7,469 nucleotides of DNA. Origin: Dehalococcoidales bacterium (GTDB taxonomy: Bacteria; Chloroflexota; Dehalococcoidia; Dehalococcoidales; Fen-1064). Below are positions 490 through 7,243 of this stretch, one piece after another. The notes below the pieces were generated by a model. The model had not been told where the DNA came from. It did no database searches and saw only the letters and a list, made by a program, of their open reading frames with translations. The stretch is from the NCBI GenBank assembly GCA_030667735.1, contig DAOUVG010000064.1, forward strand, positions 1 through 7,469, read 5' to 3'. Both the position numbers and the translations under genes were made by a program. Every line of letters begins with the position of its first letter. Position 1 is the stretch's first letter.

Positions 490-505
490 ATCGGTGAGAG
501 GCGGC

Positions 506-1075
506 ATGGTCTGGGTAATTATTATCCTCGGATACGTCCTCGGCTCCATCCCCACGGCCTACATCGTGGGACGCCTCCTCTCCGGTGTGGACATCCGGCG
601 GATGGGGGACGGCAATGTCGGTGCCCGTAACGCTTACCATGAGCTGGGACCGAAGGCCGGGGTTGGCGTGTTCTTCCTTGATGCCACCAAGGGTGCGCTG
701 CCCGTCCTGATTGCCCGGTCATTCGGCCTGCCCGATGTCTTCGTTCTGGTCGCCGGGGTTGCCGTCGTAATCGGTCACAACTGGCCGGTCTTCCTTGGCT
801 TCAGGGGAGGCAGGGGAGAGTCAACCACCATCGGAGTGCTGATGGCCCTGGTCACCCAGCCAATGCTGATTCTCGCCGGGCCGGTCCTGGCCACCCTGTT
901 TCTGAAGAAGAATACCATCATCACCAGCTGTGTCCTCTTCATTCCATTGCCACTGGTATGCTGGTGGCTGGGTGTTTCCGGAATGCTGGTGGCCTACAGC
1001 GTGGCGCTGCCGTGCCTGGTGGGTGTCACCCACTACCTGAGGACGAGGCAGGTCTCCATCGCCAGGACAGCCTAG
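506..1075 (+). CDS. plsY: PlsY-like glycerol-3-phosphate acyltransferase (divergent)
   Basis: A membrane protein of 189 residues matching the PlsY family, which transfers an acyl chain from acyl-phosphate to the sn-1 position of glycerol-3-phosphate to begin phospholipid synthesis. Visible marks are the N-terminal helix with GSIPTAY (13-19), motif 1 as DIRRMGDGNVGARN (29-42; usual form GSGNxGATN), DATKGALPV (59-67), IGHNWPVFLGFRGGRG (89-104), and several hydrophobic helices. Departures from the family are clear. The phosphate-loop motif usually written GGKGVAT is GGRGEST here. The C-terminal HxxNIxRLxxGxE motif is reduced to THYLRTRQVSIARTA, ending early. I chose the ATG at 506 because GAGAGG lies 4 bases upstream and the first helix follows at once; a GTG at 494 would add four residues. 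The gene runs convergently into the transketolase C-terminal gene. It is either a specialised paralogue or a weak or altered acyltransferase; family assignment is good, activity uncertain. Confidence 0.8.
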   Translation: MVWVIIILGYVLGSIPTAYIVGRLLSGVDIRRMGDGNVGARNAYHELGPKAGVGVFFLDATKGALPVLIARSFGLPDVFVLVAGVAVVIGHNWPVFLGFRGGRGESTTIGVLMALVTQPMLILAGPVLATLFLKKNTIITSCVLFIPLPLVCWWLGVSGMLVAYSVALPCLVGVTHYLRTRQVSIARTA

Positions 1076-2013
1076 CCCTTCCTCTCCACCACTGTCCGCA
1101 CTGCCCGCTCGATGTCTGCGGCGGTCAGCCCGTACTTCCGGAGAAGCTCCGCAGGAGGTCCGGACTCGGCATAGGTGTCTTTGATGGCGACAAACTCGAC
1201 CGGTACCGGATGCTGTCGGGCAAGTACCCGGGCTACGGCACTCCCCAGGCCGCCGTGCTCCAGGTGCTCTTCGGCGGTAACTATTGCCCCGGTATCTCTG
1301 GCTGCCCGGACTATGGCGGCCTCATCAACCGGTTTCAGGGTTGACATATTAAGCACCCGGCAGTCGATTCCTGCCTGCTGAAGGTTCCCGGCTGCCTCCA
1401 GGGCGGTGGCTACCATGGTACCGATGGCGATTATGGTTGCCCGGTTGCCCTCTCTCATGACCGTCGCCTTACCCAGCTCAAACCGGTAGTCTTCGTTATG
1501 GACCAGTGGCAGGCCGGGGCGGCAAAGCCTGATGTAGAAGGGGCCTTCGGTGGCAGCAGCCATCCTGATAACCCGGACGGTCTCTATGGCATCGGCGGGG
1601 ACAACCACGGTAAGGCCGGGCAGGGCACAGGCCAGGGCCAGGTCTTCGATAGCCTGGTGGGAGGTGCCATCCTCACCGACAGTAATACCGCTGTGAGTGG
1701 TGACCAGCTTCACATTCAGTTGTGGCTGGGCAACGGACATACGGACCTGGTCAAAACACCGTCCCGGAATAAAAACGGAGAAGGTACTGGCGAACGGTAT
1801 CTTACCGGAGGCCGCCAGCCCGGCGGCGATGCCCACCATGTTCTGTTCCGCGATACCGCAGTCGAAAATCCGTTTGGGGAACTCGCTGGCGAAGAAATGG
1901 GTCATGGTTGAGCGGGACAGGTCCGCATCCAGCACCACGACATCAGGGTTCTGCCTGCCAAGCTCGACCAGGGTTTTGCCATATGCCTCTCTCACGGATA
2001 CCGACGGCGCCAT
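1072..2013 (-). CDS. transketolase, C-terminal subunit (pyrimidine-binding and C-terminal domains)
   Basis: A protein of 313 residues equal to the second half of a full-length transketolase. Residues about 5-170 form the pyrimidine-binding domain, with CGIAEQNMVGIAAGLA (52-67). Its Glu56 is the family glutamate that activates thiamine diphosphate. The SGITVGEDGTSHQ stretch (108-120) carries the active-site His119. Residues about 185-310 form the C-terminal transketolase domain (EEHLEHGGLGSAVA). With the N-terminal subunit it would move two-carbon ketol units between sugar phosphates in the non-oxidative pentose phosphate pathway. The ATG at 2013 lies 2 bases after the upstream stop. Its ribosome site AAGGAG is the Lys-Glu codon pair near the end of that gene, so translation is probably coupled. 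Its stop codon overlaps that of the plsY-like gene on the other strand. The split form is common in bacteria and archaea; a related split ketol transferase with another sugar substrate cannot be excluded. Confidence 0.92.
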   Translation of the reverse strand: MAPSVSVREAYGKTLVELGRQNPDVVVLDADLSRSTMTHFFASEFPKRIFDCGIAEQNMVGIAAGLAASGKIPFASTFSVFIPGRCFDQVRMSVAQPQLNVKLVTTHSGITVGEDGTSHQAIEDLALACALPGLTVVVPADAIETVRVIRMAAATEGPFYIRLCRPGLPLVHNEDYRFELGKATVMREGNRATIIAIGTMVATALEAAGNLQQAGIDCRVLNMSTLKPVDEAAIVRAARDTGAIVTAEEHLEHGGLGSAVARVLARQHPVPVEFVAIKDTYAESGPPAELLRKYGLTAADIERAVRTVVERKG

Positions 2014-2015
2014 GA

Positions 2016-2855
2016 CTATTCCAGCTCCTTAAGTGCTATCTCAACCTGTTCCGGCGTAGGCGCTTTCCCGTGAAAGTCCGCGTTGTTCTCCATGAAACTG
2101 ACGCCCTTGCCCTTGGTGGTACGGGCAATGATGACGGTTGGTTGTCCTTTAATCGTTTTTGCCTGGCTAAAAGCCTCCTCAAGCCGGGTGAAATCGTGGC
2201 CGTCTGCCTCGATGACGTGCCAGCCGAACGAAGACCACTTGCTGTTGAATGGTTCCAGACCCATGACATCGCACGTCCAGCCGTCAATCTGCAATCCGTT
2301 TCTATCGACAATTGCCACCAGGTTGTCCAGCTTGAAATGGGCTGCCGCCATGGCTGCTTCCCAGACCTGTCCTTCATCACATTCACCGTCACCGAGCAGG
2401 ACATAGACCTGGTACGGTTTCGAGTCGAGTCGCCCGGCCAGGGCAACGCCAGTGGAAAAGGACAATCCCTGTCCCAGAGAACCTGCGGTCATCTCGATAC
2501 CGGGGGTGAGCATGTGGTCAGTATGGCCCTGCAGGCGGCTGTTCAGTTTCCTCAGGGTGGATAGCTCTTCCACGGGGAAGTAACCGCATTCCGCCAGGGT
2601 AGCATAGAGCATGGGAGCGGCGTGACCTTTACTCAGGATGAAGCGGTCACGGTCCGGCCATTGCGGGTCACGGGGATTGTGCCGGAGTACCCGGAAATAG
2701 AGCGTGCTGACAATCTCCACGGCTGACAGCGAACCGCCGGGGTGGCCGCTGCCGACACTGCCTATCATGGTAACAATGTGACGGCGCAGCTTCCTGGCTA
2801 TTGCCTGCATTTCCGCCAGCGAAAGTGCCTTTATCTCGCCAGGTTGTTGCATCAT
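2016..2855 (-). CDS. transketolase, N-terminal subunit (thiamine diphosphate-binding domain)
   Basis: A protein of 279 residues corresponding to the first half of transketolase. It carries GSGHPGGSLS (35-44, with His38), SKGHAAP (75-81), GSLGQGLS (125-132) and the thiamine diphosphate motif starting GDG at 155-157. Asp156 and Asn186 match the Mg2+ ligands of the family. It needs the C-terminal subunit, encoded immediately downstream, to make the active site, which lies at the interface of the two domains. The frame is open upstream to an ATG at 2924. I prefer the ATG at 2855 (or the adjacent one at 2852) for two reasons: a strong extended -10 promoter lies inside the longer frame, and 279 residues is the usual length of these split subunits. 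The upstream extension (TCFTGELLSSAVMGGIIDEQ) does not resemble transketolase. No strong ribosome site precedes 2855, and the expected leader is only about 10 bases, so initiation may be nearly leaderless. Confidence 0.9.
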   Translation of the reverse strand: MMQQPGEIKALSLAEMQAIARKLRRHIVTMIGSVGSGHPGGSLSAVEIVSTLYFRVLRHNPRDPQWPDRDRFILSKGHAAPMLYATLAECGYFPVEELSTLRKLNSRLQGHTDHMLTPGIEMTAGSLGQGLSFSTGVALAGRLDSKPYQVYVLLGDGECDEGQVWEAAMAAAHFKLDNLVAIVDRNGLQIDGWTCDVMGLEPFNSKWSSFGWHVIEADGHDFTRLEEAFSQAKTIKGQPTVIIARTTKGKGVSFMENNADFHGKAPTPEQVEIALKELE

Positions 2856-2871
2856 TGGCTTCTGCTCATCT

Positions 2872-2899
2872 ATTATACCACCCATTACTGCACTGGAAA
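2872..2899 (-). promoter_or_regulatory. extended -10 promoter of the transketolase operon
   Basis: On the minus strand TATAAT (2877 down to 2872) is a perfect -10, preceded by TGG, giving the extended -10 pattern TGnTATAAT. TTTCCA (2899 down to 2894) sits 16 bases upstream and matches four of six -35 bases. Transcription would begin near 2865, just before the chosen start at 2855. Its position supports independent transcription of the two transketolase genes rather than only read-through from the synthetase gene. Confidence 0.55.
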
Positions 2900-3016
2900 G
2901 GAGCTCTCCCGTAAAGCACGTCATGCACGTTGGAAGAAACCCTTTATCTATACTGCTGAAGTCCGCACCGCTCCGGCCCGCGGCACCAGCCGAGTGTCGG
3001 ATGACCTCTCAATCCA

Positions 3017-4492
3017 CTAGCGACCACGAAGGTAATTACTGTACTGCACCAGGTGGGCCAGTGTCTTGGCGGCTCTTTCCGGAGTAGGGTACATTACAAT
3101 GCCGTTTTCCTGAAGCTTCTTGTAGACTGGCGAATCGTTCATTCTTTCCAGGCCTCTGCCGAAGATGAGCACCGGTTTCTGGTACCGGTCCATGTACTCG
3201 ATGAGCCTGTCCAGGTCCTTCAGTTCCTCTTCCTGGTACTCCTGCATTATCCGCTCCGCCCTTTCCATGAAAGACGGGGAATCATCGGCCTGCTGCATGC
3301 TTGCCATCATGCTGCGCGACATCATGGACATCATTCCGATGCCGCCGATTACCAGCAGCGCATCCAGGTTCTCGTCCTCCAGCAGCGGCCAGATGCAGGG
3401 GTAGGTAACATTTCCCGTAGCGACGGTGTCAACCGGGTTGGCGTGCGGCCACCGGTCCGGAAGGACCTTGTTCAGCTTCTCGATGGTGTACGGAGAAAGT
3501 TGCGCAACGTCCAGTCCCAGTTTGGAGCAGGCGTCCGACGTCACGCAGCCGAAGCCACCGCCGCCGGTCAGGATGGCCACCCGGTTTCCTCTGGGCAGTG
3601 GTTGTCGAAGCACGGCCGAGGCCACGTCGAAAAGCTCATCCACCTCGTCCACCCTGATAACGCCGCTCTGCCTGAACATGGCATCGTATATCTCGTCGGC
3701 TCCAGCGATGGCACTGGTGTGCGACCGTGCCGCCTTCGCCCCGGCCGGTGTCTTGCCCACCTTAACCACCACCATCGGCTTACGCTTGGTTATCTCCGAA
3801 GCCAGCCTGAAGAACTCCCTGCCTTTTCTCAGGCCCTCGATATAGCCGGTGATGACTTTGGTATCGTTGTCGTTGGCCAGGTATTCAAGGAAATCCTCGA
3901 AATGAAGGTCGGCCTCATTACCGACGCTGACGAACTTGCTGAACCCGGCGCCTGCCTGTATGCCGGACATCAGGATGTGAATCGCGAACCCACCACTCTG
4001 CGAGATGACGCCAACTCCCCCCTTGGGAACGGGGAGCGGCATACGCAGGGTGGAGAAACCATTGGAGGTGTTGAAGTGCCCCATGCAGTTCGGACCGACG
4101 AGTCGCATGCCAATCTGATGCGCGCTTTCTACTATCTCGCGCTCCAGTATCACTCCCTCGTCGCCAGTCTCCCCCAACCCGGCGGTGATTATCAGCCCCG
4201 CCTTAACGCCCATCGCAACACAGTCCCGCATAACCTCAGGGACGTCCGGATAGGGTATTACAATCGCCACGAAGTCCACCGGTTCAGGCAGGTCACGGAT
4301 GGTCGGGTAGGCCTTGACGCCCTGCACCTCAGCGGAGGTCTTGTTGATCGGGTAAGCTCTTTTAACCGAAGGAGACTTGAGGACGCGGCTGAAGATACCG
4401 GCCCCCCATTTATCCAGGGCGTTGGATGCACCGACCACGGCAACTGTCTCGGGGTCAAACATCAGTCCAATGCGGTCAATATCAGCAACCAT
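3017..4492 (-). CDS. acyl-CoA synthetase (ADP-forming), alpha-type subunit
   Basis: A protein of 491 residues of the NDP-forming acetate/acyl-CoA ligase family, which interconverts acyl-CoA + ADP + phosphate with acid + ATP + CoA. Residues about 8-140 form the CoA-binding Rossmann domain (AVVGASN 18-24; LVGPNCMGHF 131-140). Residues about 155-290 form the succinyl-CoA-ligase-like domain, with ISQSGG (163-168) and AARSHTSAIAG (254-264). His258 there is the expected phosphohistidine. Residues about 300-490 form the third ligase domain (ILTGGGGFG 307-315; NPVD 352-355). There is no ATP-grasp domain, and no beta-subunit gene lies beside it, so the partner must be encoded elsewhere if the enzyme works canonically. 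An unusual Met-rich stretch (387-399) followed by a charged helical segment sits in the third domain. The ATG at 4492 has GAGGTGA 6 bases upstream. Substrate (acetate or another acyl group) cannot be read from the sequence; a CoA-binding role other than catalysis is possible. Confidence 0.85.
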   Translation of the reverse strand: MVADIDRIGLMFDPETVAVVGASNALDKWGAGIFSRVLKSPSVKRAYPINKTSAEVQGVKAYPTIRDLPEPVDFVAIVIPYPDVPEVMRDCVAMGVKAGLIITAGLGETGDEGVILEREIVESAHQIGMRLVGPNCMGHFNTSNGFSTLRMPLPVPKGGVGVISQSGGFAIHILMSGIQAGAGFSKFVSVGNEADLHFEDFLEYLANDNDTKVITGYIEGLRKGREFFRLASEITKRKPMVVVKVGKTPAGAKAARSHTSAIAGADEIYDAMFRQSGVIRVDEVDELFDVASAVLRQPLPRGNRVAILTGGGGFGCVTSDACSKLGLDVAQLSPYTIEKLNKVLPDRWPHANPVDTVATGNVTYPCIWPLLEDENLDALLVIGGIGMMSMMSRSMMASMQQADDSPSFMERAERIMQEYQEEELKDLDRLIEYMDRYQKPVLIFGRGLERMNDSPVYKKLQENGIVMYPTPERAAKTLAHLVQYSNYLRGR

Positions 4493-4602: not shown

Positions 4603-4631
4603 TTGACATCAAACACGGACTGTGCTATCTT
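4603..4631 (+). promoter_or_regulatory. promoter of the leuS leader transcript
   Basis: A perfect TTGACA (4603-4608) is followed after exactly 17 bases by TATCTT (4626-4631), with TGC just before it (extended -10). This is the best-formed promoter in the window. Counting seven bases past the -10 puts the transcription start at about 4638, which is the A of the leader-peptide ATG. Confidence 0.7.
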
Positions 4632-4637
4632 ACGAGC

Positions 4638-4685
4638 ATGAAAAAACAGGACCTCACACTCACACTTAGCATCGATAGTCCGTGA
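4638..4685 (+). CDS. leuS leader peptide (15 residues, Leu-rich run)
   Basis: A 15-codon ORF, MKKQDLTLTLSIDSP, ending in TGA at 4683-4685. Three Leu codons (CTC 4653, CTC 4659, CTT 4665) alternate with Thr ACA codons, giving LTLTL. It lies between a strong promoter and an intrinsic terminator in front of leucyl-tRNA synthetase, and its stop codon directly abuts the 5' arm of an antiterminator (4686-4693). That arrangement is what a ribosome-stalling sensor of charged tRNA-Leu needs. A ribosome waiting at the Leu codons leaves the antiterminator arm free; one reaching the stop codon covers it. No Shine-Dalgarno sequence precedes the ATG, and the predicted transcript begins at or next to it, so initiation may be leaderless. 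The peptide itself probably has no function after synthesis. The call rests on architecture only, since an ORF this short could occur by chance. Confidence 0.6.
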   Translation: MKKQDLTLTLSIDSP

Positions 4686-4725
4686 CCGGTGGGCAGGTTC
4701 ATCTGCACAATGGCCGTCCCACTGG
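4686..4725 (+). promoter_or_regulatory. predicted antiterminator of the leuS attenuator
   Basis: CCGGTGGG (4686-4693) can pair with CCCACTGG (4718-4725) over eight positions with one G-T. This pairing consumes the three last bases of the terminator's 5' arm, its whole loop and the first two bases of its 3' arm, so the two structures exclude each other. A small nested hairpin (GCAG 4693-4696 with CTGC 4703-4706) may form inside; it competes for base 4693. Energies were not computed. Confidence 0.55.
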
Positions 4726-4737
4726 GGCGGCTTTTTT
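4713..4737 (+). terminator. intrinsic terminator in the leuS leader (attenuator)
   Basis: GCCGTCCC (4713-4720) pairs with GGGGCGGC (4724-4731) as an 8-bp stem with one T-G pair and a 3-base loop, followed at once by six T's (4732-4737). It lies about 75-100 bases into the predicted transcript and 58 bases before the leuS start, with no complete gene before it except the leader peptide. It therefore reads as a conditional terminator controlling leuS. The synthetase gene reads away from it, so it cannot be that gene's terminator. Confidence 0.85.
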
Positions 4738-4785
4738 CGTGAGTGCCGGACACGCAGGTTGCTGTTAACGATTCTCTTTCAGACA

Positions 4786-4791
4786 GGAAGG
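4786..4791 (+). promoter_or_regulatory. ribosome binding site of leuS
   Basis: GGAAGG at 4786-4791, within a longer AGGAAGGA, lies 4 bases from the ATG at 4796 (7 bases counting from the AGGA at 4785-4788). It supports the chosen start and lies outside the attenuator structures, so control should act on transcription rather than on this site. Confidence 0.65.
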
Positions 4792-4795
4792 ACAG

Positions 4796-7243
4796 ATGGT
4801 AGCGAATTACATCCCGAATGAAGTAGAAAAGAAGTGGCAGGAGAAATGGGCCGAGACCGGGCTGTACCGGGTCACCGAGGACAGCCCCAGGCCCAAGTAC
4901 TATGCCCTGACCATGTTTCCCTATACCTCGGGCGACCTCCATATCGGGCACTGGTATAACAATGTTCCCCCTGATGTCCAGGCCAGGTTCAAGAGGATGC
5001 AGGGCTACAACGTCCTCCACCCGATGGGATTTGACGCCTTTGGTCTCAATGCCGAGAACGCCGCCATCAGCCGGGGCATTCACCCTTACACCTGGACGAT
5101 GCAGAACATAGACAGCATGCGTCGACAGCTCAAGAGCATCGGCGCTGTCTACGACTGGGACCGAGAGGTAATCACCTGCCAGCCGGACTACTACCGGTGG
5201 ACCCAGTGGTTTTTCCTCAAGCTGTACGAACATGACCTGGCCTACCGTCAAAAAGCCCCGGTGAACTGGTGCCCAAGCTGCCAGACGGTGCTGGCCAACG
5301 AGCAGGTAATCGATGGCCGCTGCGAGCGCTGCGGGACGGTGGTCAGGCGGGAAGACCGCGAGCAGTGGTTCTTCCGCATCACCAGGTACGCCGACGAACT
5401 GATGCAGCACGAAGGAATCGACTGGCCGGAGCGAACGAAGACAATGCAGCGGAACTGGGTAGGCAGGAGTGAAGGCACCGAAATCTCGTTCGGCCTTGAC
5501 CACCCCGGGGTGGAAGAAAAAGAGCTGGGGGTTTTCACCACCCGCCCGGATACTATTTTCGGCGTGACCTTCATGGTCCTCGCTCCGGAGCACCCGCTCG
5601 TGCCCAGGCTCACCACAGCGGAGAAGAAAGCCGAGGTTGAGGACTACGTGGCCAAATCGCGGGAGCAGACGGAGATAGAGCGCCTGTCTACCGAGAAAGA
5701 GAAGGACGGGGTATTCATCGGCGCTTACGTTACCAACCGGCTCAACGGCCGGAAGGTGCCCATCTGGATTGCCGATTACGTGCTCCTGGGCTACGGTACC
5801 GGTGCCGTCATGGGTGTGCCGGCCCATGATGAGCGTGACTTTGCCTTTGCCAGGAAATATGGCATACCGATTCCGGTAGTTATCGCTCCGGAGGGATGGC
5901 AGGGAAAAGAGCTATCCGAGGCCTACATCGAGCCCGGCACAATGGTGAACTCGGACCAGTTCAACGGGCTGCCCAGCGAGCAGGGGATAGAGGCCGTTTC
6001 CGGTTTCCTCGAAGAGAAAGGTTGGGGGAAGCGAACGGTAAGATATCGCTTGCGCGACTGGCTGATTTCGCGGCAGCGTTACTGGGGCGCACCGATACCG
6101 ATGGTCTACTGCGATAAGTGCGGTATCATCCCGGTGCGAGAGGAAGACCTGCCCGTCCTGCTGCCTGAGGACGCCGAGTTTAAGCCCACCGGTGAGTCCC
6201 CGCTGGCGCAACACGAAGGGTTCGTCAATACCACCTGTCCAAAGTGCTCTTCACCGGCCAGGCGGGAGACGGACACCATGGACACCTTCATGTGCTCTTC
6301 CTGGTACTTCCTGCGCTACTGCAGCCCGCACTATGATAAAGCCGCATTCGACCCGGTCAAATTGAAGTACTGGATGCCGATGGACCTTTACACCGGCGGT
6401 GCCGAGCACGCCGTGATGCACCTGTTCTACGCCCGTTTCTTCACCAAGGCACTCCGGGATATGGGGCTGGTGGATTTCGGTGAGCCGTTTACGCGCCTTT
6501 TCAACCAGGGTATCATCATCCGCGAGCACCAGAAAATGAGCAAGTCAAGAGGCAACGTGATTAACCCGGATAAGTACGTCGCAGAGCTCGGGGCGGATAC
6601 GATGCGCATTTATCTGATGTTCCTCGGGCCGTGGGAGCAGGGTGGTGACTGGTCTGACAGCGGTATCAACGGCGCCAGCCGGTGGCTAAAGCGTATCTGG
6701 GACCTGGTGCTGGAGGATTATACCCCCGGACCGGGGACCGGCGGTGACGAAGCACTCACCGGGCTACAGCGCATAACTCACCAGACCATCCGCAAGGCGA
6801 CCGTCGACATCGAAAGACTGCGCTTCAATACCATGCTTGCCGCCCTGATGGAATACACCAACTACCTGAGCAAGACCAAAGAGGCGGGTAATATCACGCA
6901 GGCCGACTGGAAGGAGGCCATCGATACCCTGCTGCTGCTCCTGGCACCAACTGCCCCACACATTACCGAAGAGCTGTGGGAGCGGACCGGCCACGACTAC
7001 AGCATTCATAGCCAGGACTGGCCGGAGTGGGACGAAGCGCTGGCGAAGGATGAGGAGATTACGCTGGTAGTCCAGGTCAACGGCAAGCTGCGCGACCGTA
7101 TTACTGTCCCGGTGTCAATCAGCGAAGAGGAAGCCTTGACGCTTGCCTTCGAAAGTCAGAAAGTGAAAGCACACATCGAAGGTAAAGAGGTGGTCAGGAG
7201 AATATACGTGCCGCAGAAACTGGTGAATATCGTTGTGAAGTAG
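4796..7243 (+). CDS. leuS: leucyl-tRNA synthetase (class I, bacterial type)
   Basis: A full-length cytoplasmic enzyme of 815 residues that charges tRNA-Leu with leucine using ATP. The class I signatures are HIGH at 49-52 and KMSKS at 580-584. The CP1 editing domain (about 220-400) is intact. It has TTRPDT at 248-253 and GVPAHDERD at 340-348, with Asp345 as the expected editing residue that binds the amino group of the mischarged amino acid. Two zinc knuckles are visible: Cys159/162/176/179 near the editing-domain entry and Cys439/442/481/484 after DWLISRQRYWGAPIP. SSWYFLRYCSP follows, as in LeuRS. Residues about 655-775 form the helical anticodon-binding domain, and the C-terminal end carries VQVNGKLRDRITVP, typical of bacterial LeuRS. 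Length and residue numbering are close to the Escherichia coli enzyme. It is preceded by a leader peptide and terminator that probably adjust expression to leucine-tRNA charging. A small membrane-protein ORF follows 26 bases downstream. No truncation or frameshift is seen. Confidence 0.98.
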   Translation: MVANYIPNEVEKKWQEKWAETGLYRVTEDSPRPKYYALTMFPYTSGDLHIGHWYNNVPPDVQARFKRMQGYNVLHPMGFDAFGLNAENAAISRGIHPYTWTMQNIDSMRRQLKSIGAVYDWDREVITCQPDYYRWTQWFFLKLYEHDLAYRQKAPVNWCPSCQTVLANEQVIDGRCERCGTVVRREDREQWFFRITRYADELMQHEGIDWPERTKTMQRNWVGRSEGTEISFGLDHPGVEEKELGVFTTRPDTIFGVTFMVLAPEHPLVPRLTTAEKKAEVEDYVAKSREQTEIERLSTEKEKDGVFIGAYVTNRLNGRKVPIWIADYVLLGYGTGAVMGVPAHDERDFAFARKYGIPIPVVIAPEGWQGKELSEAYIEPGTMVNSDQFNGLPSEQGIEAVSGFLEEKGWGKRTVRYRLRDWLISRQRYWGAPIPMVYCDKCGIIPVREEDLPVLLPEDAEFKPTGESPLAQHEGFVNTTCPKCSSPARRETDTMDTFMCSSWYFLRYCSPHYDKAAFDPVKLKYWMPMDLYTGGAEHAVMHLFYARFFTKALRDMGLVDFGEPFTRLFNQGIIIREHQKMSKSRGNVINPDKYVAELGADTMRIYLMFLGPWEQGGDWSDSGINGASRWLKRIWDLVLEDYTPGPGTGGDEALTGLQRITHQTIRKATVDIERLRFNTMLAALMEYTNYLSKTKEAGNITQADWKEAIDTLLLLLAPTAPHITEELWERTGHDYSIHSQDWPEWDEALAKDEEITLVVQVNGKLRDRITVPVSISEEEALTLAFESQKVKAHIEGKEVVRRIYVPQKLVNIVVK

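What the first reader, a model, noticed from the sequence alone, without database searches (positions are those of the whole stretch)
4603..4795. Leader-peptide transcription attenuator in front of leuS
The sequence shows, in order, a TTGACA/17/TATCTT promoter, a 15-codon ORF with an LTLTL run, an antiterminator arm (4686-4693) starting at the base after its stop codon, and an intrinsic terminator (4713-4737) whose folding excludes the 8-bp antiterminator pairing 4686-4693:4718-4725. By established attenuation logic (as for trp, leu and pheST leaders), a ribosome stalled at the Leu codons leaves 4686-4693 free and leuS is read. A ribosome at the stop codon masks it and transcription ends. Leucyl-tRNA synthetase genes in Firmicutes are usually under T-box control. 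A compact leader-peptide device here, about 100 bases long, would be a different solution and may be undescribed for this lineage.
Basis: partly seen in the sequence, partly recalled or inferred. Interest (0 to 1): 0.75.

Follow-up and report, generated by a model that had tools for sequence, protein, structure and literature searches.

The report
Leucine-codon attenuator before leuS
In a family of Chloroflexota bacteria the gene for leucyl-tRNA synthetase is preceded by a tiny leucine-rich reading frame and a conserved RNA terminator with a competing hairpin, which together would likely switch the gene on when charged leucine tRNA runs short; related copies carry valine codons before the valine enzyme and leucine, valine and isoleucine codons before a shared biosynthesis gene.

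Summary
The window is a Dehalococcoidales (Chloroflexota) MAG, not a Firmicute. Promoter, Leu-rich leader ORF, antiterminator arm and terminator recur before leuS in 14 of 14 held genomes of its family. Homologous elements stand before ilvD (13 of 14; the other genome shows no ilvD) and valS (6 of 14). A covariance model found 24 more in the order, 23 before ilvD and 1 before leuS. All 57 elements lie before ilvD (36), leuS (15) or valS (6), and the codon run follows the gene: mean Val 3.67 in valS leaders, 0.27 in leuS leaders. The leader ATG lies 6-10 nt after the -10 box in 52 of 56 measured elements, so the leader mRNA is predicted to be leaderless. Antiterminator covariation exists but is modest. 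No Rfam family matches the window, while ileS in the same family mostly has a T-box. Classical leuS attenuators were already predicted in Streptomyces, so the kind is known. New, as far as searched, are the lineage, the predicted leaderless leader ORF and the re-addressing of one element to three genes by codon change. Nothing was tested in cells.

The parts
4603..4631 (+). predicted sigma-70 promoter TTGACA-17-TATCTT with extended -10 (TG)
   Evidence: scan; TTGAC and the TG before the -10 box are invariant in 24 aligned elements. No TSS data.
4638..4685 (+). leader ORF MKKQDLTLTLSIDSP*, predicted leaderless (ATG 6 nt after the -10 box)
   Evidence: ORF with Leu codons kept in 15 of 15 leuS leaders; Leu/Val/Ile codons more frequent in frame than in the other two frames
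4653..4667 (+). control codons CTC-ACA-CTC-ACA-CTT (Leu 4653, 4659, 4665); last Leu codon 24 nt before GTGGG
4686..4693 (+). antiterminator 5' arm CCGGUGGG, directly after the stop codon
4696..4715 (+). predicted inner helix of the antiterminator (4696-4698 and 4700-4702 with 4710-4715)
   Evidence: fold; an inner helix of GUCUC:GRGGC type was counted across 52 elements
4718..4725 (+). antiterminator 3' arm CCCACUGG, shared with the terminator
4713..4737 (+). intrinsic terminator, 8-bp core stem (4713-4720:4724-4731), ACU loop, U tract 4732-4737
   Evidence: a contiguous hairpin of 8 or more pairs in 55 of the 55 elements that the script reached before it stopped; L196 and L197 are imperfect by eye
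4785..4792 (+). Shine-Dalgarno-like AGGAAGGA of leuS itself
   Evidence: sequence, by eye
4796..7243 (+). leuS, bacterial leucyl-tRNA synthetase, 815 aa
   Evidence: NCBIfam TIGR00396, 1037.4 bits against cut-off 548.4

Best explanation
Bases 4603-4737 hold a promoter-like sequence, a 15-codon Leu-rich ORF and two mutually exclusive predicted hairpins, an arrangement that recurs before leuS in all 14 held genomes of the family and is predicted to act as a ribosome-sensed transcription attenuator of leuS. Inferred sequence of events: RNA polymerase starts at or within about 4 nt of the leader AUG, and a ribosome is predicted to start on this leaderless 5' end. If leucyl-tRNA is scarce it would stall at 4653-4667; its front edge (about 12 nt past the A-site codon, recalled value) would stop short of 4686, so CCGGUGGG would pair with CCCACUGG as it emerges, the terminator could not form and leuS would be read. 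If leucyl-tRNA is plentiful the ribosome would reach the stop at 4683-4685, cover 4686-4693, and the terminator would form. The same element, probably by duplication of an older ilvD attenuator, stands before ilvD and, in some genera, valS, with the control codons changed to fit the gene.
For: Conservation before leuS in 14 of 14 family genomes and in G476 of another family. 57 of 57 elements lie before ilvD (36), leuS (15) or valS (6), checked by tblastn. Codon run follows the gene: mean Leu/Val/Ile per leader 3.20/0.27/1.00 for leuS, 1.00/3.67/0.50 for valS, 2.49/2.31/1.77 for ilvD; in 6 of 6 genomes with both, Val minus Leu is higher in the valS than in the leuS leader; in 14 of 14 with both, ilvD has more Val+Ile than leuS; label permutation 0 of 20000 in family f1 (related genomes are not independent). 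Homology of leuS and ilvD leaders: blastn 70% over 135 bp, E 1.9e-8. L/V/I share 0.32-0.52 in the reading frame against 0.22-0.32 and 0.06-0.13 in the other two. Geometry suits stalling: the last cognate codon lies 21-27 nt before the arm in 14 of 15 leuS leaders (33 in the other) and 21 nt in 6 of 6 valS leaders. L195 carries an arm and partner recoded on both sides (7 bp with each other, at most 4 bp with the canonical halves), L188 one compensated pair; inner helix 86.6% of cells paired, 3 of 500 shuffles as high. The ORF upstream of leuS (3017-4492, an acetate--CoA-ligase-alpha-like protein) is on the other strand, so leuS needs its own promoter here.
Against: No transcript, TSS or reporter data. 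Covariation of the outer antiterminator helix is modest (56 of 2000 shuffles as high) because it is nearly invariant; L182, L189 and L191 would pair better with the canonical partner than with their own, and L190, L098 and L191 have only 4 contiguous pairs. For the inner helix the number of double-sided changes (3 cells) is not above shuffles (65 of 500) or slid controls (up to 6). leuS leaders have at least as many Leu codons as the ilvD leader in only 11 of 14 genomes. No family-wide pairing of the ORF with arm 1 (a 1:2 protector) was found. In 25 of 56 elements the first base of the stop lies 8-17 nt before the arm, too far for a ribosome there to cover it fully. ilvD leaders in some other families have promoter and terminator but no leader ORF by eye, so an ORF-independent layer is not excluded.
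Confidence: 0.86

Rival explanations
1. A T-box or other tRNA- or ligand-binding riboswitch controls the terminator and the ORF is incidental.
For: leuS T-boxes occur elsewhere in the phylum (L036, L038, L044 above the gathering score, L043 below it), and ileS in the same family has T-boxes (10 of the 11 loci given, of 16 found).
Against: No Rfam match in the window at E up to 1 nor in 11 related leader loci apart from one match far below its gathering score (L107, RF02837, E 0.37), with the same scan finding T-boxes readily. Only 52 nt lie between the stop codon of the ORF and the end of the U tract.
Confidence: 0.02
2. The terminator/antiterminator pair is regulated without the peptide (for example by a protein or by start-site choice), and the ORF is an added or secondary sensor.
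For: Promoter-terminator leaders without a leader ORF by eye precede ilvD in other families of the order (L141, L151, L153, L194, L198, L238; and f9 genomes L239-L241, L244-L248).
Against: It does not explain why the codons follow the gene nor the constrained codon-to-arm distance.
Confidence: 0.08
3. The leader senses any slowing of translation (for example general starvation) and not leucine in particular.
For: A ribosome stalled anywhere well upstream of the arm would free it (inference).
Against: Gene-specific codon runs.
Confidence: 0.03
4. Chance arrangement of a promoter, a short ORF and a terminator.
For: Terminator-like sites are at the shuffled expectation, and the arm pattern alone is as frequent as its reversed control (26 and 24 matches).
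Against: 57 homologous elements, all before three branched-chain amino acid genes.
Confidence: 0.01

Closest known systems
Classical leuS attenuators of Streptomyces (Seliverstov et al. 2005, PMC1262725; passages and the Leucine section read)
   Same: Leader ORF with Leu codons, antiterminator and terminator before leuS, predicted by comparison.
   Different: Other phylum; given there before leuS in two species; the main text has no occurrence of valS, ilvD or leaderless.
S. aureus ilvD attenuator with a Leu/Ile-rich peptide (Kaiser et al. 2018, PMC5794164; passages read)
   Same: BCAA-rich leader peptide and terminator before ilvD; ribosome stalling proposed; selected mutations support it.
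   Different: Terminator 52 nt after the peptide stop; the proposed antiterminator pairs with the U tract; no synthetase copies in the passages I read.
ilvB-II and ilvB-OMG motifs (PMC10272879; passages read)
   Same: BCAA-rich uORF (15-17 codons usual in ilvB-II) with, for ilvB-II, terminator and antiterminator.
   Different: They precede ilvB; the window and 11 leader loci gave no Rfam match of this kind (I did not check that these motifs are in the library).
trp, leu and pheST leaders of enterobacteria (recalled)
   Same: Ribosome position on cognate codons chooses between antiterminator and terminator.
   Different: Those have Shine-Dalgarno-led leader ORFs, and trp a protector 1:2 stem (recalled); here the ORF is predicted leaderless and no family-wide 1:2 stem was found.
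Small uORFs on leaderless transcripts of mycobacteria (PMC4633059; passages read)
   Same: Small ORFs rich in cysteine codons proposed to attenuate cysteine genes; leaderless transcripts common.
   Different: No terminator/antiterminator pair of this type in the passages read.

Membership tests
Ribosome-mediated (classical) transcription attenuation | short leader ORF with codons cognate to the regulated gene | tested here: met
   15 of 15 leuS leaders with Leu codons; valS leaders Val-rich; ilvD mixed
Ribosome-mediated (classical) transcription attenuation | intrinsic terminator between leader ORF and gene | tested here: met
   4713-4737, z -3.43; recurs in the other elements
Ribosome-mediated (classical) transcription attenuation | antiterminator mutually exclusive with the terminator | tested here: met
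   shared 4718-4725; pairing kept across most elements with modest covariation. By computation only.
Ribosome-mediated (classical) transcription attenuation | protector (1:2) stem involving the leader ORF (feature of the trp type, not of every classical attenuator; recalled) | tested here: not met
   arm1-ORF pairing not clearly above shuffles: mean 0.61 against 0.50 for leuS, 0.32 against 0.31 for ilvD, 0.18 against 0.30 for valS
Ribosome-mediated (classical) transcription attenuation | read-through rises when the cognate charged tRNA is scarce | not testable with these tools
   needs transcript data or a reporter
T-box leader (RF00230) | match to the T-box covariance model | tested here: not met
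   no match in the window at E up to 1; positives in leuS of L036, L038, L044 and ileS
Leaderless mRNA | 5' end at or within a few nt of the start codon | tested here: inconclusive
   predicted only: -10 box to ATG 6-10 nt in 52 of 56 measured elements (4 of 6 valS leaders have 19-21 nt); no TSS data

The most novel reading that the evidence does not exclude
Dehalococcoidales run a branched-chain amino acid regulon built from one portable, leaderless attenuator. An ilvD leader was copied in front of leuS and, separately, valS, and each copy was re-addressed to its tRNA by point changes in a handful of leader codons, while ileS in the same family kept a T-box. The ribosome would load on the bare 5' AUG as a 70S particle, making this a Shine-Dalgarno-free attenuator whose amino-acid address is rewritten by codon change alone.
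Probability: 0.6. Interest if true: 0.68.

Novelty: new variant of a known kind. Interest (0 to 1): 0.55.

Why it matters
It gives an RNA-level control circuit for branched-chain amino acids in a phylum for which my searches listed no leader-peptide attenuator in print. It shows natural re-addressing of one attenuator to three genes, so the codon rule can be read from sequence. It also predicts leader-peptide attenuation working from a leaderless 5' end, which raises a testable question about how a ribosome couples to RNA polymerase when it starts on the very tip of the transcript.

Tried and rejected
T-box: no match. Leader in other named Dehalococcoidia leuS loci: of the 39 loci printed only L007 (apparently the same contig as G001:C74, both 14415 bases) has it by eye, and a promoter/terminator regex over 41 loci returned a complete leader only there (five other loci returned partial matches, inside genes or without the rest). 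A 1:2 protector stem between ORF and arm 1: in the window clade it looks possible, with compensated differences between the window and L116/L118, but it is not above shuffles (window 0.70 against 0.58), so it is not claimed. A hairpin just after the stop in elements with a distant stop (CGGCC:GGUCG type) was scored; only L174 is reached by fewer than 10 of 200 shuffles, so it is only a lead. Masking by a ribosome at the stop as a universal rule: rejected, distances vary. Of the 25 class-wide loci whose context I printed, five (L131-L135) are leader-peptide elements, six or so lie before ilvD without a clear leader ORF or are T-boxes, and the rest are other terminators; matches beyond those were not opened. 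L199-L201 and L147 are not leaders; L122, L126 and L127 are chance pattern matches. The CM alignment A3 (58 rows, one of them an opposite-strand match in L121) misplaces arm 1, so it was not used for pair counts. L196 (a base N; the script missed its promoter) was left out of peptide, gap, arm and pair counts, hence 56 and not 57; pair counts used 52 distinct segments. A leuS tree (39 of 50 rows, 11 dropped because my motif did not find them) shows the leader label clustered (2 changes) without proving one origin.

Full report
Observation. The antiterminator segment folds at -17.8 kcal/mol (z -2.19) and the terminator at -16.0 (z -3.43); they share 4718-4725 and so exclude each other. The whole leader is not unusually stable (z -1.11). 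Scans alone would not have settled it: terminator-like sites in the window are at the shuffled expectation (5 against 5.7).

Organism. leuS relatives place the window in Dehalococcoidales, Chloroflexota (best 94% identical, Dehalococcoidales isolate BS750m-G43). T-boxes do occur before leuS elsewhere in the phylum: of four loci that I picked by eye, three pass Rfam's gathering score and the fourth is below it.

The element is a family. blastn of the leader against 41 genomes gave 12 with matches, including second copies 70% identical over 135 bp (E 1.9e-8) in two genomes of the same genus. Those second copies lie before ilvD (NCBIfam TIGR00110). A pattern search of the 14 held genomes of the family gave 26 matches, 23 of them complete elements; the reversed control pattern gave 24 matches, so the pattern itself is not specific and the context is the evidence. 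A third target appeared, valS (TIGR00422). A covariance model of arm and terminator (R1) was searched in 393 genomes of the class (59 genomes at E <= 0.01, many of them chance) and 156 of the order. In the order there are 59 matches at E <= 1e-4. Of these, 56 are leader-peptide elements before ilvD, leuS or valS, two (G437, G303) are leaders before ilvD without an ORF by eye, and one (G321) is elsewhere. With G481 (E 1.6e-4) the set is 57 elements: 33 in the window's family and 24 outside. tblastn of the downstream DNA gives ilvD for 36, leuS for 15 and valS for 6.

Distribution. leuS leader: 14 of 14 family genomes, plus G476 of another family. ilvD leader: 13 of 14; in the remaining genome, G007, the ilvD query found no gene (the same query matched 20 of 20 other genomes). 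Outside the family there are 23 ilvD elements; with the family, eight families in all. valS leader: 6 of 14; in seven of the others the valS upstream region shows no such leader by eye and in one (G003) the contig begins inside valS. Among 39 named leuS loci printed, only L007 has the leader. The order-wide ilvD form and the narrow leuS and valS forms suggest that the ilvD attenuator is older and was copied; the leuS gene tree clusters leader-bearing genes but does not decide between one and two origins.

Codons follow the gene. Leaders before leuS average 3.20 Leu, 0.27 Val and 1.00 Ile; before valS 1.00, 3.67 and 0.50; before ilvD 2.49, 2.31 and 1.77 (15, 6 and 35 leaders; L196 left out for an ambiguous base). 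Within genomes, Val minus Leu is higher for valS than leuS in 6 of 6, and ilvD has more Val+Ile than leuS in 14 of 14; leuS has at least as many Leu as ilvD in 11 of 14. A label permutation gave 0 of 20000; the genomes are related, so these are not independent trials. From one genome (G006): SLVLIVTYSSR (ilvD), SLVLSITYSG (leuS), LVVVTKSSR (valS). Here the leuS peptide looks like the ilvD peptide with its Val and Ile codons thinned out and its Leu codons kept. This is the strongest evidence that the peptide codons are the sensor.

Near-leaderless start. The distance from the -10 hexamer to the leader ATG is 6-9 nt in 15 of 15 leuS leaders, 6-10 in 35 of 35 ilvD leaders and 8 in 2 of 6 valS leaders; the other four valS leaders have 19-21 nt. 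With the usual start about 6-7 nt after the -10 box (recalled), the leader mRNA would begin at or within about 4 nt of the AUG in 52 of 56, with no room for a Shine-Dalgarno sequence. leuS itself has AGGAAGGA before its ATG.

Antiterminator. With the terminator's 3' half absent, many elements fold into an outer GUGGG:CCCAC helix and an inner GUCUC:GRGGC-type helix, though not all do (55 segments, L182 and L188 missed by the regex). The inner helix has 86.6% of cells paired (shuffles 84.4, 3 of 500 as high), three of five pairs with a double-sided change (17 of 500), and more cells paired than any slid version (next 70.4); but its double-sided cells (3) are not above shuffles (65 of 500) or slid versions (up to 6). 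The outer helix hardly varies; own partners beat shuffled ones only modestly (56 of 2000 as high). L195 is recoded on both sides (CUGGAGG:UCUCCAG, 7 bp; at most 4 bp with the canonical halves) and L188 carries one compensated pair. L182, L189 and L191 would pair better with the canonical partner than with their own; L190, L098 and L191 have only 4 contiguous pairs. So the structure rests on conservation and a few compensated changes, not on strong covariation.

Geometry. The last cognate codon lies 21-27 nt before the arm in 14 of 15 leuS leaders (33 in L189), 21 nt in 6 of 6 valS leaders and 12-23 nt in ilvD leaders, while the first base of the stop codon is 3-17 nt before it. For the window, a ribosome with the last Leu codon in the A site would end near 4677, short of the arm; at the stop it would reach about 4695 and cover the arm (footprint recalled). 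For the 25 of 56 elements with the stop 8 or more nt away the masking step must differ; a small hairpin after the stop is a lead only.

Same family, two systems. ileS (TIGR00392, 888.5 bits, for the window's genome) has T-boxes in 10 of the 11 loci given, out of 16 found in 14 genomes; L222, the miss, shows GGTGGTACCGCGGG by eye. The window genome's own ileS contig is cut off upstream, so its T-box could not be looked for. Thus leuS, valS and ilvD use the leader-peptide device beside T-box-controlled ileS.

Literature. Classical leuS attenuators are predicted in Streptomyces (PMC1262725, passages and one section). A Leu-rich attenuator of ilvD is supported by mutants in S. aureus (PMC5794164, passages). 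BCAA uORFs precede ilvB in several groups (PMC10272879, passages). A 2010 survey states that, to its authors' knowledge and leaving aside the ermC leader, leader-peptide systems had not been shown outside Proteobacteria and Actinobacteria before its own finding in bacilli (PMC2965389, passages). A survey of cis-regulatory RNAs that includes five Chloroflexi genomes has no occurrence of leader peptide, leuS or Dehalococc in its main text (PMC3766115, term search). My searches for Chloroflexi, Dehalococcoides or Dehalococcoid with attenuation or leader peptide, for Dehalococcoides with leaderless, for leaderless with leader peptide, and for valS with leader peptide listed no description of this element. 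Most listings were capped (9 of 9, 20 of 160, 20 of 84, 1 of 1, 8 of 138, 12 of 29, 15 of 91 and 10 of 137 papers shown), the library holds only openly licensed papers, and Lopatovskaya et al. 2010, cited in PMC4833913, was not read.

Verdict. A conserved leader-peptide attenuator of leuS, part of a three-gene family in Dehalococcoidales. The kind is known; the lineage, the predicted leaderless leader ORF and the codon re-addressing are new as far as searched. Shown: sequence, conservation, gene association, codon association, foldability. Inferred: start site, ribosome loading, stalling, read-through and the direction of copying.

Noticed in passing
L141, L151, L153, L194, L198, L238; L239-L241 and L244-L248: In other families of the order ilvD is preceded by a promoter-like site and, a few dozen nt on, a terminator with no leader ORF by eye; in genomes of family f9 the predicted leader RNA is only about 35-50 nt. 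How such a micro-leader would be regulated is unexplained.
   Followed up: partly
L217-L221, L223-L227: ileS in the same family is under a T-box (RF00230 above the gathering score in 10 of 11 loci given), so both systems coexist.
   Followed up: yes
L036, L038, L044 (and weaker L043): leuS of some other Chloroflexota has a T-box leader, so leuS control has switched type within the phylum.
   Followed up: partly
downstream of GTGGG in most elements (A4 columns 18-22); in the window the stretch around 4696-4705: A GUCUC stretch follows the antiterminator arm in most elements; it probably forms the inner antiterminator helix.
   Followed up: partly
L018, L021, L023, L028, L048, L086, just before leuS: Other Dehalococcoidia leuS genes show a -10-like box close to their own ATG (by eye), so leaderless mRNAs may be common in the class.
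   Followed up: no
L108 (G005): The ilvD reading frame looks interrupted after about 80 codons in this MAG; an assembly error or a broken gene.
   Followed up: no
window 494-2924 and 3017-4492: Neighbours (all below NCBIfam's curated cut-offs): a PlsY-like acyltransferase (+), two halves of a split transketolase (-), and an acetate--CoA ligase alpha-like protein (-) divergent from leuS.
   Followed up: partly
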